Origin: Neocallimastix lanati (nom. inval.)
Lineage: Eukaryota; Neocallimastigomycota; Neocallimastigomycetes; Neocallimastigales; Neocallimastigaceae
Direction of reading: 5' to 3'
Assembly: GCA_016946835.1 (NCBI GenBank)
Contig: JACVTC010000040.1
Span: 585,001-649,000, forward strand
Length of the DNA: 64,000 bases
Shown here: positions 10,025-36,381 of the stretch, one piece after another
Layout: every line of letters starts with the position of its first letter
How positions within the stretch are numbered: position 1 is the first letter of the stretch
Position numbers and translations under genes: made by a program
The notes under the pieces: model-generated
The model's input: the letters and a program-made list of their open reading frames with translations, nothing else
What the model was told of the DNA's origin: nothing
Databases searched by the model: none

Positions 10025-10606
10025 ATCCAATATTTTGAAAAAATAATACAAAAATAATTAAATTAAATAAAATTAAAATTAAATAATAAAAAAAACTTAT
10101 ATTACTATTTTTTTTTTTTATTTAAAATTAAATAATATCATGAATACGTTTTACTTTAATAATAATAATAAAAAAGAACGGTAATAATAATAGCAATTAG
10201 AAAAAAAAAAAATAAATAAATAAATAAATAAAATAAACATAAACATAAACATAAACAAAATTACATAAATATATTATATTTTTTTTATTATAAATAAATT
10301 TTCATTTTATAAAAATATATAACATTAAACAAAAAAGAAAAAACATTATAATAAAATAAAAATAAGTTAACAGAAATATCTACTAAACTATTCATATTTA
10401 AAAAGAAATTATAAAATTTTTTTATTATAAAAATTTATAAAATACACTTTATACAAGTCTATGTTAATCTTATATATAGATTATAAATATTATTATATTG
10501 CAATAATAATATTTTAATAATGACATCTAATTACAACATTATAAAAATAAATTTCTGAGGATTATTAATAAAATATTTTATTAATCCTTATCAATAAGGT
10601 AAAAGT
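10025..10606. other. Convergent intergenic region
   Basis: This is a 3'-to-3' spacer between PGGT1B and HAP3. It holds an AAAT/AAACAT microsatellite (10205-10260) and otherwise unstructured A+T. No gene is seen. Confidence 0.6.
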
Positions 10607-10730
10607 TTATTGGTAAGGATTATATTGTTGTTGATATAAAGCTAATGTTTCTTCCATTCCATTATCTTTTCCTGCTGATGATCTTTCATTTTTAGTGGCC
10701 TTTTTGTAAAATTATTATTTAACAACAACA

Positions 10731-10778
<48 letters not shown>

Positions 10779-11215
10779 AAAAGGAAAAAAAAAAGAAAGA
10801 AAAAATAAATTTAATATTATAATTGTTATTATTATTATGAAATCATAAATTCTTTCTATTATTATTTTTATTAATATTATCATTACGATTATTTTATTAT
10901 TATTGAATAATTTACCTCACGATATTTATGTAAATAAACTTTTAAAGTTTCACAATAATTTTCAAAGCCAAGAGATTGCATAGCCCATAATATATCCTCA
11001 CCATTAATTGTTTTACGTTTTTCATTTTGACAACGATCACTTGCTGTATTTATAATGAAATAAATAAATATATAATAATAATAAAAAAAAAAAAAAAAAT
11101 TAAGGATTATAATAGTATTCACTTCTAAAAAAATGAAATAAAATAAAGTAAAATAAATAGAAACAAGGAGATTTTATTTAATTTCATAATAATAAAGTAT
11201 TAATTTTAAGCGTAA

Positions 11216-11280
<65 letters not shown>

Positions 11281-11468
11281 GGATATTCGCTAGTTATGAA
11301 AGAAATAAATTCTGAAACACATTCTTGAACACATTCTTTTGCATCTTTTGCAATTTTAGCATTTTCTGGTAACGCTCTTTTCATAATACGAGCTACATTT
11401 GCAATTGGAAGGTAACGATCTTGTTCTTTAAATTCTTCAACATGTTCTTCTGGTTGTTCATTTGACAT
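10607..11468 (-). CDS. HAP3: CCAAT-binding complex subunit HAP3 / NF-YB (histone-fold)
   Basis: Three exons: 11468-11287, 11045-10916 and 10699-10607 (405 nt, 134 aa). The protein shows the almost invariant NF-YB core: [68 protein letters not shown] and [20 protein letters not shown] pairs through its H2B-like histone fold with NF-YC, and the dimer recruits NF-YA to bind CCAAT boxes. The second intron (10915-10700) is ordinary GT-AG and contains a ~43-nt A run (T on the coding strand). The first intron is unusual: no GT-AG pair joins SFITSE to ASDRC, whereas an AT-AC pair does so exactly (separate entry). The tail [15 protein letters not shown] is divergent. Identity is certain from the histone-fold core. 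Confidence 0.95.
11046..11286 (-). other. Putative U12-type AT-AC intron in HAP3
   Basis: On the minus strand exon 1 ends ...AGCGA and is followed by ATATCCTTA, matching the U12 5' splice consensus (R-TATCCTTT) at eight of nine positions. The intron ends ...AAATAC before AGCAAGTGATCG. Joining gives GA|A GCA AGT GAT, restoring the invariant SEASDRC of NF-YB. A branch-site-like TCCTTAAT (11106-11099) sits about 54 nt from the 3' end, farther than usual, with a poly-T/ATT stretch between. An AAT/ATT tract (11217-11280) follows the donor. No GT donor near codon GAA gives the conserved protein. Confidence 0.8.
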
Positions 11469-12703
11469 TTTTAATACTATTTTAAATAAAATGATAATAA
11501 AAAATATCAATTATATAATAATTATATAATCATTATATTAAAATTTTATTATTATAATTAAATATATATTGTTGTTATTGTTTTTATTATTAATAATATT
11601 ATTATTACAGTTACGATTAATATTATGATTAATACTATTATATTTATTAAAAATTCAAAATTTCAAAATTTTTTCCTATAATATATATTTTCATTATTAT
11701 ATTTATTTAAAATAATTCTAAGTATGTAATATTTCATATCATTTCTAAAAATAAAATTTATTAAAAAAAATAGCTTTAATTTTTATATTTATGTAAATGC
11801 ATATTTCGCATATATACTTATTTTATATTATTCTATAATGTGTATATAAAAATAAAACTTGAACATAAGTTAAAATAAAATTATTTTAATAATATTATAC
11901 CTATATTAATAACAAGGAATAATTTATTCAATAATTTTAAAGAAAAAAAATAATTTCAATTGTATAATTATAATAATTAAAAACGAAATAATCATTATTG
12001 TTATAAATTAATAATATATGTACTAAACTATATTACAATATATTAATAAAATAATATCAAATAATATTAAATTTATAATATATTAATAAAATAATATTAA
12101 ATATATAAGTTTATTAATAAATAAATAATCAATTAAAAGGATTTTACAGAAAAATTCAATAAAATATTATTATGAATAAGTTCAATAAGAATTAGTTTGT
12201 CAATATTTATATACATAAAAATATATAATTTAATAAATATTGTTTATATATGTATATGTATTATAAAAGCAAAAAAAACATATAAAAAATATATGATATA
12301 TTAAAAAATAAATTTAAAATGAAATTGATTTACTATTTTTAAATATAATTATAACATACTTCATAATTTTGTTATTTTTTCCTTCTAAAAACTAAAAGAA
12401 ATACAAATAATAAATATAATTAAAGATATAAGAAATTTGATTTTATTTTTATGTAGATTTTATTCTATTCCATTAATTTAAAAAAATTTATGTTATAAAA
12501 TTACTAATTAAATATTTATAATAAAAAATAAACAAAAATATAAAAATATATTTCAAAAAAAAAAAAAAAAAAAAAAAAACTAATACTAATACTAATACTA
12601 ATACTACTACTAATAATAATAATAATAATAATAATAAAATAAAAAAATAAAAATAAAATAAATTCAATAGTAAAATTTAATATTAAATAAGAGTATAAAC
12701 AAA
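11469..12703. promoter_or_regulatory. Divergent intergenic region HAP3 / YIP1
   Basis: 1.2 kb of A+T-rich DNA between two divergent start codons, so it must contain both promoters. It holds an A run (12558-12579) and a CTAATA/AAT microsatellite (12581-12636) just upstream of YIP1. No other gene or clear motif is visible. Confidence 0.5.
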
Positions 12704-14333
<1,630 letters not shown>

Positions 14334-14846
14334 AAAATAGTAAATTTTTTAAGAATAACATTAAAAGTAGTATTTTTTTTTCTCAGTAAAAAAAAAAGTA
14401 AAATAAATAAAATAGAAATATAATAAATAAAATCATTATTATTGTTAAGTTATCAAAGAATAAAATTAATATAAAATACTAAATATTTAAAATAAACTAA
14501 AATAAATAAAAAAAAATAATAATAATAATAATAATAATAATAATTATAATAATTATAATAATTTATTTTATTATTTATTTATTTAATAATAGTATTCAAT
14601 AATATTAAATATCTATGTAATAAAATAAATAAATAAATAAATTAAAGATAAAAAAATAAAAATTATAAATTATAAAAATATAAAAATAAGAATAATAATC
14701 GTAGAAATAAAAATAAAATAAAATAAAAATATATATATATCAATAATAAAAATTAATAATTAAAACAATAGCAAGCAAAAATAAAAAAATAAAAAAATAA
14801 AAAATAAAAATAAATAATAATAATAATAATAATAATAATAATTATG

Positions 14847-20955: not shown

Positions 20956-23861
20956 TTAAACATCCTCCAAAATTAATCTTGGTACAACATTCATACTCAT
21001 TAATTCTTGGAATAAAAGTTTACAAGCGTATGGTACTTGAATATTTGAAACACCCTTTCTCTTTTTACAATATGGACAATAGCCTTGGAATCCAATCAAA
21101 CCACAATCTTGGCATACATCAATTTCAAACGCATCACTACTAAACATTAATCTTTCCATTAATAAATTACTAGCACCATGACCAATTAAACAATCACGTT
21201 CCATTTCACCAACACGAAGACCACCATCTCTTGAACGACCTTCTGTTGGTTGTCTTGTTAATACAGCACGTTTACCACGAGATCTAGCATGCATCTTATC
21301 TAAAACCATGTGTTTTAGACGTTGATAAAATACTGGACCAAAGAATATATAAGCCTCTAATGGTTCACCAGTAATACCACTAGTAACATAATCTTTTCCC
21401 GAATAATTAAAACCATGTTCAATTAAAATTCTTGACATATCATCAACCTTACTACCTCCAAAAGTAGTACCATATTGTAATTCACCCTTCAATACACCTG
21501 CTTTACCAGCTAACAATTCAATCATCTTACCAACTGTCATACGACTTGGGAAACCTTTTTATTTATCAAAAATTAAATTCAATAAATATATAAAGAACAA
21601 ATCACATAGTAAATTTTATCAAATTTTTATTTATGTATATATATTTAGAATAATAATTACCATGTGGGTTCATAATAATATCTGGTACAATACCAAGATC
21701 ACTAAATGGCATATCTTCTTGGTTAACAATTAAACCACAAACACCTTTTTGACCATGTCTTGAAGAGAATTTATCACCTAATTCAGGACGACGAGTTTGT
21801 CTAACTAAAACTTTTACCAAAGTTTGATCTTCTTCGTTTGTTGTAATTAAAACCTAAATAATAATAATTATAATAATAATAATAATAATTAATATTTTTT
21901 ATACTAATATGAAAAAAGAAATTAAATATTCAATAAAAAATTTATTAATTTTTGAAATTATTCATTTAAATAACTTACTCTATCAACATAAGAAACACCT
22001 GGATATTTAAAGTTTTGTTCTGTATTAGTATATTCAACAGTTCCACGATTTCCATCAGAAGTTGGTCCATTCTCAACAGGAGATTGTTTAAAGATATAAC
22101 ACTATAATATTAATTAATTATTTATTTATTTTGTTTGGTTTTTAATAATTATTATATATATTGTATCTTATATAAAATAGATTAAAAATTACCTTTCCAG
22201 GATCAATTCTTTCACCAACAGCGCAAATACCATCTTCCTCCAATACTGAGAACTTTGGATCAATATTATGTGTAACAGGATCTCTTGGTAAAAATACACG
22301 ATCATATGTACCATTTGGATAAGTTTTTATCATTGCAGAGAATCTTCTCATAGTTTGAACACGAGCAAAACCACGATCTAATGATGCCTAATGTGTTAAA
22401 TTAATTATATTTTATTTTAAATTATAATAAATTATTATAAATTCATCAAAAATATAAATGAAAACAGCATTATATTAATTAAATTTAAAAATTTCAAACC
22501 TTATTAACAATTAATGCATCTTCAATATCATAACCACTATAACTCATAACAGCAACAGTTGCATTTTGACCAGCAGGTAATTTATTATAACCAATTAATT
22601 CAATAGTCTTAGTCTTTACCATAGGTTGTTGTGGATATACATTAAGATATAATAAAGTATCAGTTCTAGTAAATTGATTATAAGCAACAGCACCAATGGC
22701 TTGTTTACCCATAGCACATTGATAGGTATTACGAGGAGATTGATTATGATGTGGATATGGAATTAAACCAGCAACAGCACCTAAAATTGTAAATGGTTCA
22801 ATTTCTAAGTGTGTAGTATTATATAATTCTGAAGCTGCTTCAAATGTCATTTCATTAAGAATTTGCTTTTCTTTACCAGTAATATATGTAATATCCTTTT
22901 CATACATAGCAATATTAGAATCACTTTCTTCATTAACATCAACAAATTCAATTTTACCTTCTTTTACAAAATCATCAAAGCCTTTAATACCATTTAATAA
23001 ATTTTTAATATCATTATCAGTCATATTTGGTTTTCCATTTTCAATAATAATTAATGGTCTACAAACTCTACCACCATCACTACTAATATTAATTGTTTTT
23101 TGTTGTTCATTTCTATAAATACTAACAAAAGCACCAATACGGCCAGCTCTTCTTAACCTTCTAAAATCTTTTACAAATTTTAAAGGATTTTTATGAACAC
23201 CTAAAGTAATACCATTTAAGAATACTAAGAAAGTACTTGGATTAGAATATAGTTCAATACCGGTTAATAAATTAATATCTTCAACACCCAAAATATATGC
23301 AATATTACGAACTGGTTCATCTTCAGAATCAGTAGTAATATGTGTCATTAAAGCTAAATTTTTAATTAAACCACAACCTTCACCTTCTGGTGTATCTGAT
23401 GGACATAGCATACCCCATTGCGATGTTTGCAATGAACGAGGACCTGAAACTTTTCTCGTTTTTTCAAATTGTGATGTGATACGTGTCAGCATACCTAATG
23501 CACTAATATAACTTAACCTACTTAAAACTTGAGTAATACCAGCTCTTTCCATTTTGAAACGTTTAACATTCCAATTTCCCGAACTAATACTTCTAAATAA
23601 CGTTTCTGTAATATGCCTACTATGAGATTTAATAATTTTAGCTGCATCTACTACTGCAGTTCTATTATTACGTCCTAATTGAAGATCAATTTCTTTTTTA
23701 ACATGATGAATAAAAGATTTGAATGCATCTTCGAATAAAAGTGATAATAATTGGCCTGCCCTTTTATCATAATTAAACAATACGTCAACGTACACATAAA
23801 TAAGAATTATTAATATTAATTATTATTATAAAATATTATAATTATAATTATTATTATTATA

Positions 23862-33653: not shown

Positions 33654-35865
33654 ATGGGTAAATCAAAAATTGCTAAAATTCCTAATACACCACAAAATCC
33701 ATCTCTTAAACAAAAAAGAAATCTAGAAAAGTATAAATTTTGAATTATTAAATTTTAGAAATATTTAACAATATAATTATATATAAGTTTTAAAGTCTTA
33801 TTAGAAAGATGTAATTTTTTACTTTTATTAATAATTATAATATTTTTTATTTCAATTTGTGTTATTATAAATAAATTCTTTAAAATCAATTATTTTTATA
33901 ATAAGAAATGAAAAAACTACAGATGTTACACCTTCAGTGGCAAAAAATACAAAACCAGGAAACTATAAGCCAGAAAATGAAATTTTTATAGATAAAAATG
34001 ATTTGAATGATGAAGATGAATATGACAATAATGATGATGATTATTCTGATGATTCATATGAGTTTGACGAAGCTGAAACAGCTCAAGAAGCATTTGAAGC
34101 AAAATATTATCACAATAGAAGAGCATTATCAATTAGCAATAAAAATTCTTATGGTAACAAAATTTCAATAAAAAAAGTCAACAATTTATTAGCTAATCAA
34201 AATATTATGATCATTGATAAAAATCAATTCACTGAAACTATGAATAATAATGGATTATTATCTAATGATGGTCCATCCTCATCAAATAATATATCAATTC
34301 AAAATGATAATCAAAAAAATGTGGAATCAATAGATAATAATCAATCACTTTCTAATGGAATTGATTTAGTTGCTTTATATAATAACACTAATTCAATCAA
34401 TAGTTTAAAAGGAGAAATCAGTATATATGAAAAGGATGAAATAGATCAAGATATTAATCCTAAAAAAGAAGGTACATCAACTAAAGAAGAGAATGAAATA
34501 ATAAACAATAGTAAAAAGAACAAAAAGTCATTCAAAAAATATGAAAATTCAAATTTAACTCAGTATGTTACAGAGGATACTGAAGGTTTTATTAAATCAA
34601 AAAAGTCAAAAAATAGAAGAGTTAGTGATGCATTAAACTCAAAAATTGATAAGAACAATGAATCTGATGAACAATCAGATCAATCTTCTTCAAGTCAAAT
34701 GGAAAATTCATCATCAATTCCTGTGAGCAAAAGAGGTTCAATTCAAATTTCCGTTGATAAGAAACAAATTCAAATCCTTTGTGGTTCTAAGACAACACCA
34801 ATAAAGCTTTCAGAAAATAAAAATTTAGCGATTATCGTTAATCCAACATCAATTCAAAAAGAAGATATCCAAGAATTATTAGTATCTCCAACAAAATCTC
34901 GTTCTAAAAATAATAAGCCTTCTATTCCAGTAATTTCTTCTTCACCATTTACTAAAAATCACAATAGAAATAACCACACAAAAATTAATAATAATAAATT
35001 AAATACACCACAAAATATTTCTCCTGGATTTAACAAACCGTCAAGTCCTATTAAAATGTCCAAAAACAATAAAAATAAAACTGTTATTGCTGAATCACCA
35101 CTTTTTTCCAGCTCGTATCCCCCATCGATTAATACTTGTTCAAATAAATACAATCCAACAACAGATAAAGTTAATCAAAATTCAATTAACTATAAATACA
35201 GTTTATTAGATAAATACAACATGAAAAAATCTGCTTCGCCTGTAGAAAACAATAGATGTACAAATAGATTCTTAAAGGATGAATCTGAACTAAATGATGA
35301 ACAACCGAAATTAAGTAAAAAAGAAATAAAAGCCTTAAAAAAATTACAAAAAAATAAAAAATTTATTGAAGAAAACAACAATCTTAATAGCTCTCGTAAA
35401 ACTTATATTGTTGACCATGGTAATAATGAAATATATAATGATATTTTTGGTGGAAAATGTGATACAGAAAGCGAAGAAGAACAATCACCAACAAAAAAAA
35501 GTCAAAAAAAGAAAAAAAATCTCAGCAAACAGCAATCGGAAATATCACAAATAATAAATGATAATGAAGAATTAGAAAGTCCATCAAAAGGAAAGAGAAA
35601 TAAAAAAACCCAAAAAAATCAAAAGTATCAACAACAACAATTTGATAATGAAATTTCTAATAATGTACCAAAGAAAAAGAAAAACAATAAGAATAATAAA
35701 AATAGTTATAAAAATGCTATAACCGAAGATGATGATGATGAAACTTCTCATAGAAAACACAGTAAGAAAAGTAAACATCAAGAACTTGAATTCAATATTG
35801 AAAATATTAGTGATGATGATGATTTGTTCCATATTACTTCCAATATAAAAAATAAAAAAAAATGA
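33654..35865 (+). CDS. Unrecognised disordered protein, acidic N-terminus and Lys-rich C-terminus
   Basis: Two exons, 33654-33730 and 33906-35865 (2,037 nt, 678 aa). The first encodes MGKSKIAKIPNTPQNPSLK; the junction AA|A gives Lys and continues NEKTTDVTPSVAKNTKPGN. An acidic block (NDDDYSDDSYEFDEAE, ~45-75) precedes QEAFEAKYYHNRRALS, then Ser/Asn-rich disorder with SP motifs (ISPGFNKPSSP, SSPIKMSK, KSASPVEN). A more ordered-looking SKKEIKALKKLQKNKKFIEE precedes YNDIFGGKCDTESEEEQSP and a Lys/Asn-rich tail. Several KKxKKNK stretches could be nuclear localisation signals. No known domain is recognised; many SP sites suggest phosphorylation. Gene reality is supported by the long frame and matched intron. 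Confidence 0.8.
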
Positions 35866-36381
35866 ATATAGAAATCCTTATTATCTCATTTTTTATTAAT
35901 AATATTTTCTTTTTATTTCTCTCATTGAATTAATTGTGTTCGTTTATATTTATTTAAAAAAAATTTTTTTACTAAATTTTTTTTTTTTCTATTACTTTTT
36001 TCTATATAAAAAAATTTTTGTAGTTCATACAATTTATTTAAAATATAGTGTAAAAAATATATATATATAAAAATATATAATATATTATAATAATAATAAT
36101 GATTTTTTTATTAATTTATTTAAATAATTTAAAATTATTTTAATTATATTGATAAAATAAAAAATTATAAATAAAGTTAATTAAGAAAATTATAATTACT
36201 TTTTATTATTTAATTAATTAAAAAATTTATAAAAATAAAAATATTTAAATTCAATATTTTATATCATTTTTTTTATTTTCATAAATAGAATAATAAATCA
36301 TAATTATTATTAATAATGATATTATGATAAATATAAATATTTGATATTGTATTTATAAAATTAATTATCCCAATATCATTG
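35866..36381. other. Gene-free A+T-rich stretch
   Basis: Downstream of the 33.7-kb gene. T runs and a TA run at 36050-36070; nothing else is recognised. Confidence 0.5.

What the first reader, a model, noticed from the sequence alone, without database searches (positions are those of the whole stretch)
11046..11286. AT-AC (U12-type) intron in HAP3/NF-YB
The only splice pair that restores the near-invariant SFITSEASDRC of NF-YB uses AT...AC ends. The 5' site ATATCCTTA fits the minor-spliceosome consensus at eight of nine bases, and a TCCTTAAT branch-like motif is present, though 54 nt from the 3' site. Minor introns are rare in fungi, so one in a core transcription factor of a gut fungus is notable. 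The ATT expansion after the donor and poly-T between branch and acceptor suggest tolerance to intron growth.
Basis: partly seen in the sequence, partly recalled or inferred. Interest (0 to 1): 0.82.

Follow-up and report, generated by a model that had tools for sequence, protein, structure and literature searches.

The report
Fungal minor intron with stretched tail
A basic gene-control protein of what looks like a gut fungus is interrupted by a rare 'minor-class' intron, and this one and most sister introns found in the same genome have an unusually long, T-rich gap between the inferred branch signal and the end of the intron, longer than the textbook spacing for such introns.

Summary
The AT-AC intron is real by sequence: window 11286..11046 (minus strand, 241 nt) in NF-YB/HAP3. 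The genome holds U11, U12, U4atac, two U6atac genes and U11-48K. A diverged duplicate gene (contig C532) keeps the intron, its ATATCCTT start and AATAC end. I found six further AT-AC introns in four more gene families (WDR19/IFT144 and POLR3C, each in two copies; eIF2A; one unidentified gene). Minor introns are already reported for Neocallimastigomycetes (PMC10639083), so presence alone is not new. What looks new: over the 8 introns the branch-like motif lies 54, 69, 90, 38, 74, 62, 18 and 35 nt from the 3' end (published optimum 11-13), before T-rich sequence, and the 3' site is the first AC after it. Spacing differs between duplicates while the signals persist; 5 of 8 motifs lie wholly or partly outside a standard -55 search window. 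Second oddity: both U6atac copies lack canonical 5'-site complementarity (AAG to GCC at nt 12-14) although U4atac has co-varied. No RNA was seen; GT-AG minor introns could not be surveyed.

The parts
11287..11468 (-). NF-YB/HAP3 exon 1
   Evidence: joined protein matches HapC/NF-YB across the junction
11046..11286 (-). AT-AC U12-type (minor) intron, 241 nt
11278..11286 (-). 5' splice site ATATCCTTA (8 of 9 to ATATCCTTT)
   Evidence: ATATCCTT kept in the paralogue
11216..11278 (-). (ATT)21 microsatellite inside the intron, absent from the paralogue
11099..11106 (-). branch-site motif TCCTTAAT, candidate branch A at 11100, 54 nt from the intron end (or the A before it)
11048..11099 (-). T-rich stretch (T17, then ATT/ATTT) between branch motif and 3' site, without internal AC or AG
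11046..11047 (-). 3' splice site AC (AAATAC|AG), first AC after the branch motif
10916..11045 (-). NF-YB exon 2
10700..10915 (-). GT-AG intron 2 of the same gene, also with a long T run
10607..10699 (-). NF-YB exon 3 and stop

Best explanation
11286..11046 is a U12-type AT-AC intron of an NF-YB/HAP3 gene, removed by a minor spliceosome that this fungus encodes. Proposed order: U11 with U11-48K reads ATATCCTT; U12 (AAGGAU) pairs with ATCCTT of the branch site; U4atac/U6atac and U5 join; the 3' end is then found by running from the branch to the first AC, at a distance that may vary (18-90 nt over 8 introns), across T-rich sequence. Shown by sequence: the intron, the RNA genes, the duplicate, the position of the motifs. 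Inferred: splicing itself, use of these branch points, and the first-AC search.
For: Joined exons match NF-YB without a gap and AT-AC is the best of 178 pairs. snRNA genes present; U11-48K. The paralogue on C532 keeps position, ATATCCTT and AATAC|AG; coding sequence differs at 24 of 405 nt, 23 synonymous and 1 other codon change of 135, so both copies are under constraint. Further AT-AC introns: of 22 pattern hits (10 in the reversed control) 3 have coding flanks; paralogues of two of them; one of 4 hits to a branch+T pattern that did not select the 5' site (reversed control 11). Homologues align across the junction for POLR3C (E 0.0049), WDR19/IFT144 (9e-9) and eIF2A (2e-17). The best branch motif lies outside 8-35 nt from the end in 6 of 7 introns; no internal AC in 384 nt of 7 introns where 6.7 are expected at the upstream rate, shuffle P 0.008.
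Against: No transcript seen. AT-AG shifted by 2 nt fits NF-YB nearly as well, and its Ser is what the Piromyces finnis protein has there, though its 5' site (ATCCTTATT) is poor. Branch points are inferred from motifs alone, NF-YB's is weak alone; an unrecognised closer branch point is not excluded, and in POLR3C C101 a weaker match (4.5 bits) lies 4 nt from the end. The 8 introns are 5 families; 4 of the 8 branch motifs were selected by pattern; the 3' site of the C46 gene rests on reading frame, not on a homologue. T runs also occur in the GT-AG intron 2, so they may be neutral.
Confidence: 0.85

Rival explanations
1. The intron is minor-type, but the real branch point is a degenerate adenosine close to AC, and the upstream TCCTTAAT-like motif is a relic or coincidence; spacing would then be normal.
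For: NF-YB's motif alone is weak (P 0.49 and 0.059). Both NF-YB copies share ATTATAAA(A)TAC at the end.
Against: In 7 of 7 introns scanned the named motif is the best match, and in 6 of 7 the zone 8-35 nt from the end has nothing above 1.3 bits on a rough matrix. Motifs persist in duplicates whose spacing changed. This genome's U12 keeps the branch-pairing GUAAGGA.
Confidence: 0.17
2. An AT-AG or other junction is used (intron 11284..11044, or GT-AG elsewhere), read by the major spliceosome.
For: AT-AG 11284/11044 scores 1475 against 1478 and yields the Ser found in P. finnis.
Against: Its 5' site ATCCTTATT fits the U12-type consensus badly and is not GT; the best GT-AG pair damages the histone fold (1259). 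An ATATCCTT...AC reading in the same register joins eIF2A, WDR19 and POLR3C in frame with homologues. Mixed AT-AG ends are disfavoured (PMC3584512 passages).
Confidence: 0.05
3. The long T-rich spacer is a positive signal (a polypyrimidine tract bound by a U2AF-like factor), not just tolerated growth.
For: T fraction after the branch motif 0.71 against 0.50 before it, over 7 introns.
Against: Length and make-up vary between duplicates (a T39 run against mixed repeats in POLR3C), and the C46 gene has almost none. A long T run is also in the GT-AG intron of NF-YB.
Confidence: 0.2

Closest known systems
U12-type AT-AC introns of animals, plants and early-diverging fungi
   Same: ATATCCTT 5' site, TTCCTTAAC-like branch site, AC end, all four minor snRNA types in the genome
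   Different: Branch motif to 3' end 18-90 nt against an optimum of 11-13 nt, and a T-rich spacer although such introns are said to lack a distinct polypyrimidine tract (PMC3584512 passages)
Minor introns of Neocallimastigomycetes (Larue and Roy 2023, PMC10639083)
   Same: Probably the same class of fungi (NF-YB 97% identical to Piromyces finnis); presence already reported
   Different: The passages read give no branch spacing or U6atac sequence for this group. They used intronIC with default settings; the intronIC paper scores the branch from -55 to -5 (PMC7367187 passages), which leaves out 5 of these 8 motifs wholly or partly
U2-type introns with distant branch points and AG scanning (recalled, from no call)
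   Same: First suitable dinucleotide after a distant branch, across pyrimidines
   Different: Here U12-type signals and AC instead of AG

Membership tests
U12-type (minor) intron | 5' site RTATCCTT | tested here: met
U12-type (minor) intron | branch site near TTCCTTAAC | tested here: met
   ATCCTTAAT, 7 of 9; P 0.059 alone, paralogue P 0.005; by plain matches P 0.49 and 0.012
U12-type (minor) intron | short branch to 3' site distance, about 11-13 nt | tested here: not met
   54 nt here; 18-90 nt in 8 introns. The review calls this an optimum and names the 5' site and branch site as the defining features, so membership is not lost
U12-type (minor) intron | no distinct polypyrimidine tract | tested here: not met
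   T fraction 0.73 after the branch motif, T run of 17
U12-type (minor) intron | minor spliceosome encoded | tested here: met
   U4atac below Rfam's cut-off; of the proteins only U11-48K was sought
U12-type (minor) intron | splicing depends on U11/U12/U6atac | not testable with these tools
   needs RNA
NF-YB/HAP3 | CBFD_NFYB_HMF histone fold | tested here: met
   PF00808 100.5 bits; HapC 1.2e-47
canonical U6atac | GG14/15 pairing with 5'-site C5/C6 | tested here: not met
   nt 12-15 read GCCG in both copies; the pairing in human U6atac is described in PMC4980772 passages

The most novel reading that the evidence does not exclude
This fungal minor spliceosome has dropped two rules thought general: the short branch-to-3'-site spacing, replaced by a run to the first AC at up to about 90 nt, and canonical U6atac pairing with the 5' site, while its introns keep ATATCCTT, so that the 5' site is held by other contacts (such as U11-48K).
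Probability: 0.35. Interest if true: 0.75.

Novelty: new variant of a known kind. Interest (0 to 1): 0.52.

Why it matters
If branch points are truly 40-90 nt from AC, the spacing rule used to recognise minor introns is a lineage property, not a need of the machine, and surveys with -40 or -55 windows may undercount minor introns in AT-rich fungi. A natural U6atac without GG14/15-type pairing would make testable what that pairing is needed for. Duplicate genes give ready natural pairs for such tests.

Tried and rejected
Canonical U6atac elsewhere: GAAAGGAGAGANNGTTNGCAC with up to 2 mismatches gave 2 hits (reversed control 2), both in a repeated element-like coding stretch and without any Rfam match: rejected. 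TTGTATGANNNGAGAGANNGTTNGCAC with up to 3 mismatches gave only the two GCC copies. This lowers, but does not remove, the chance of a missed canonical gene; the Rfam search itself scored only 46 of 4700 first-look candidates.

Pattern hits dropped: of 22, 13 were printed with flanks and 8 were read for frames; L040 overlaps L039 and was not read apart. 3 were kept. L022, L027, L031 and L034 showed no clear coding flanks and stay undecided; the others were not called, being mostly in open coding frames or without coding flanks on both sides. Branch+T pattern: 4 hits, fewer than the 11 of the reversed control; one was already known, one is eIF2A, and L053 and L055 had no 5'-site match within 600 nt.

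An earlier count of NF-YB exon differences ran 20 nt into intron 2; one search replaces it. A hairpin bridging branch and 3' site in NF-YB was considered by eye only and dropped, as AT-rich sequence pairs by chance. The U6atac 5' pattern was not found in viral contigs. Two weak histone-fold matches (C168, C468) were fetched but not studied. Papers: the searches (capped listings, e.g. 20 of 116 and 10 of 475) listed no paper that by title or abstract start describes long branch spacing or a changed U6atac in anaerobic fungi; I opened only the five papers named in the full report.

Not done: GT-AG minor introns, longer AT-AC introns, other anaerobic fungi, minor-spliceosome proteins other than U11-48K, RNA.

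Full report
What is there. On the minus strand the window carries an NF-YB/HAP3 gene: exon 1 11468..11287, AT-AC intron 11286..11046, exon 2 11045..10916, GT-AG intron 10915..10700, exon 3 10699..10607. The protein has the CBFD_NFYB_HMF fold and aligns to HapC without a gap over the junction. The best database match is a Piromyces finnis protein, 97% identical over 97%, so the host is taken to be an anaerobic gut fungus (inference; the genome, 199,045,447 bases in 762 contigs, is unnamed).

Is the junction right? Among 178 open in-frame pairs of five end types, AT-AC 11286/11046 scores best (1478 summed over three relatives); AT-AG 11284/11044 follows at 1475 and gives SESSDRC, the reading of the P. 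finnis protein. GC-AG, GT-AG and GT-AC are clearly worse (1409, 1259, 1079). The AT-AC reading has the 8-of-9 U12-type 5' site; the AT-AG one would begin ATCCTTATT.

Is there a minor spliceosome? By sequence, yes: U12 on C146 (56.8 bits), U11 on C50 (40.5), two U6atac on C246 and C588 (57.4, 56.4), all over Rfam's cut-offs, and U4atac on C610 (47.2, below 53). U4atac and U6atac pair in stem II (-26.2 kcal/mol) and stem I, with changes on both sides relative to the Rfam consensus (read), so they look like true partners. A U11-48K-type zinc finger (C279, 33.9 bits over a cut-off of 21.1; 1 of 14 control genomes also rang) lies in a gene with the RDYKRRR.SYRAKN stretch of human U11-48K (E 5.8e-9, mostly from that stretch). 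No other minor-spliceosome protein was sought.

The duplicate. C532:829301-829796 carries a second NF-YB in a partly collinear region. The coding sequences differ at 24 of 405 nt: 23 synonymous and 1 other codon change of 135. The intron (184 nt) is at the same site, starts ATATCCTTTTT, ends AAAATAC|AG, has TTCTTTAAC 69 nt from the end and a T run of 42; the (ATT)21 repeat is absent.

More introns of the same kind. ATATCCTTN{8,38}TN{8,38}TCCTTRAC gave 22 hits against 10 for the reversed pattern. Three have coding flanks that join in frame over AT-AC: C46 (unidentified gene; best Pfam hint MCM3_WHD at E 0.21, below cut-off), C257 (WDR19/IFT144; E 9e-9) and C753 (POLR3C; E 0.0049). Protein searches found duplicates of the last two with the same intron: C1 and C101. 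A branch+T pattern that did not select the 5' site gave 4 hits (reversed control 11), one the known POLR3C and one an intron of eIF2A on C423 (E 2e-17, gapless over the junction). In all, 8 introns in 5 gene families.

Spacing. The last A of the branch motif to the intron end is 54 and 69 (NF-YB), 90 and 38 (WDR19), 74 and 62 (POLR3C), 18 (C46) and 35 nt (eIF2A). A review gives an optimum of 11-13 nt and no distinct polypyrimidine tract (PMC3584512 passages). With a rough weight matrix of mine the named motif is the best in 7 of 7 introns scanned (eIF2A not in that scan); shuffle P 0.059, 0.005 (NF-YB C335, C532), 0.002, 0.007 (WDR19 C257, C1), 0.001, 0.032 (POLR3C C753, C101) and 0.002 (C46); in 6 of 7 nothing above 1.3 bits lies 8-35 nt from the end. 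By plain matches NF-YB C335 reaches only P 0.49. The motifs of C46, C257, C753 and eIF2A were selected by pattern; the other four were not. T makes up 0.71 of the stretch after the branch motif and 0.50 before it. Inside the after-branch stretches of 7 introns (384 nt) there is no AC where 6.7 would be expected at the upstream rate (P 0.008 by shuffling), and one AG (5 nt after the branch in WDR19 C257) where 7.3 would be expected. eIF2A adds 35 nt with neither before the final AC. The 3' site was set by homology or paralogy in 7 of the 8 and by reading frame in C46, not by this rule, so I read it as a search from the branch to the first AC. Why it may have been missed: windows used to find branch points are -55 to -5 (PMC7367187 passages) or -40 to -5 (PMC2846911).

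U6atac. Both copies are identical over their first 54 nt and read UGAGCCGAGAGA where the Rfam consensus reads UGAAAGGAGAGA. In human U6atac G14/G15 pair with C5/C6 of the 5' site (PMC4980772 passages). Here nt 12-14 are GCC; predicted pairing with AUAUCCUUU falls from -5.7 to -1.4 kcal/mol. U11 (AGAAUAGGCUU) also pairs less well in these predictions (human-like piece recalled), though its exact 5' end is unknown. Yet ATATCCTT is kept in all 8 introns, in 5 of them without selection by a 5'-site pattern of mine. No canonical U6atac was found by two pattern searches. I hold this as a real but unexplained feature; the two copies are paralogues, not independent evidence.

Known or new. Minor introns in Neocallimastigomycetes are in print (PMC10639083 passages). 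Long T-rich spacing and the U6atac change were not found in print in the searches listed under Tried and rejected; only passages or parts of five papers were read (PMC10639083, PMC2846911 parts 1-3 of 4, PMC4980772, PMC3584512, PMC7367187).

Limits. No RNA; one genome; five gene families; GT-AG minor introns not surveyed because the search did not complete.

Noticed in passing
L004 (G000:C246:1236632-1236780) and L005 (G000:C588:485025-485170): Both U6atac copies carry GCC at nt 12-14 in place of AAG, and GGC in place of the AGC triad, the latter with a matching U4atac change.
   Followed up: partly
L012 (G000:C532:826001-834000) against window about 10200-14760, 20994-21235 and 35427-35866: Partly collinear duplicate region; NF-YB, POLR3C and WDR19 each exist in two diverged copies, which suggests large-scale duplication or two diverged subgenomes.
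   Followed up: partly
L002 (G000:C50:340477-340610): U11 5' end reads AGAAUAGGCUU, with a U opposite +8 of the 5' site when the GG is aligned to CC.
   Followed up: partly
L044 (G000:C279:1004975-1005049): U11-48K-like gene in several short exons; no RTATCYTT or TATCCTT site was found in the 3 kb locus on the strand as held.
   Followed up: partly
window 4304, 9316, 22891, 41499, 41942, 52965 (+) and 9294 (-): Other RTATCCTT matches in the window, not tested for being minor 5' sites.
   Followed up: no
L018 (G000:C2) and L019 (G000:C268): Near-identical repeated coding stretch with a zinc-knuckle-like sequence (by eye); false hit of the U6atac pattern.
   Followed up: no
8 introns: All eight end ATAC or TTAC; in seven the exon then starts with A, and AATAC|A occurs in five. 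May be a local 3'-site consensus.
   Followed up: no
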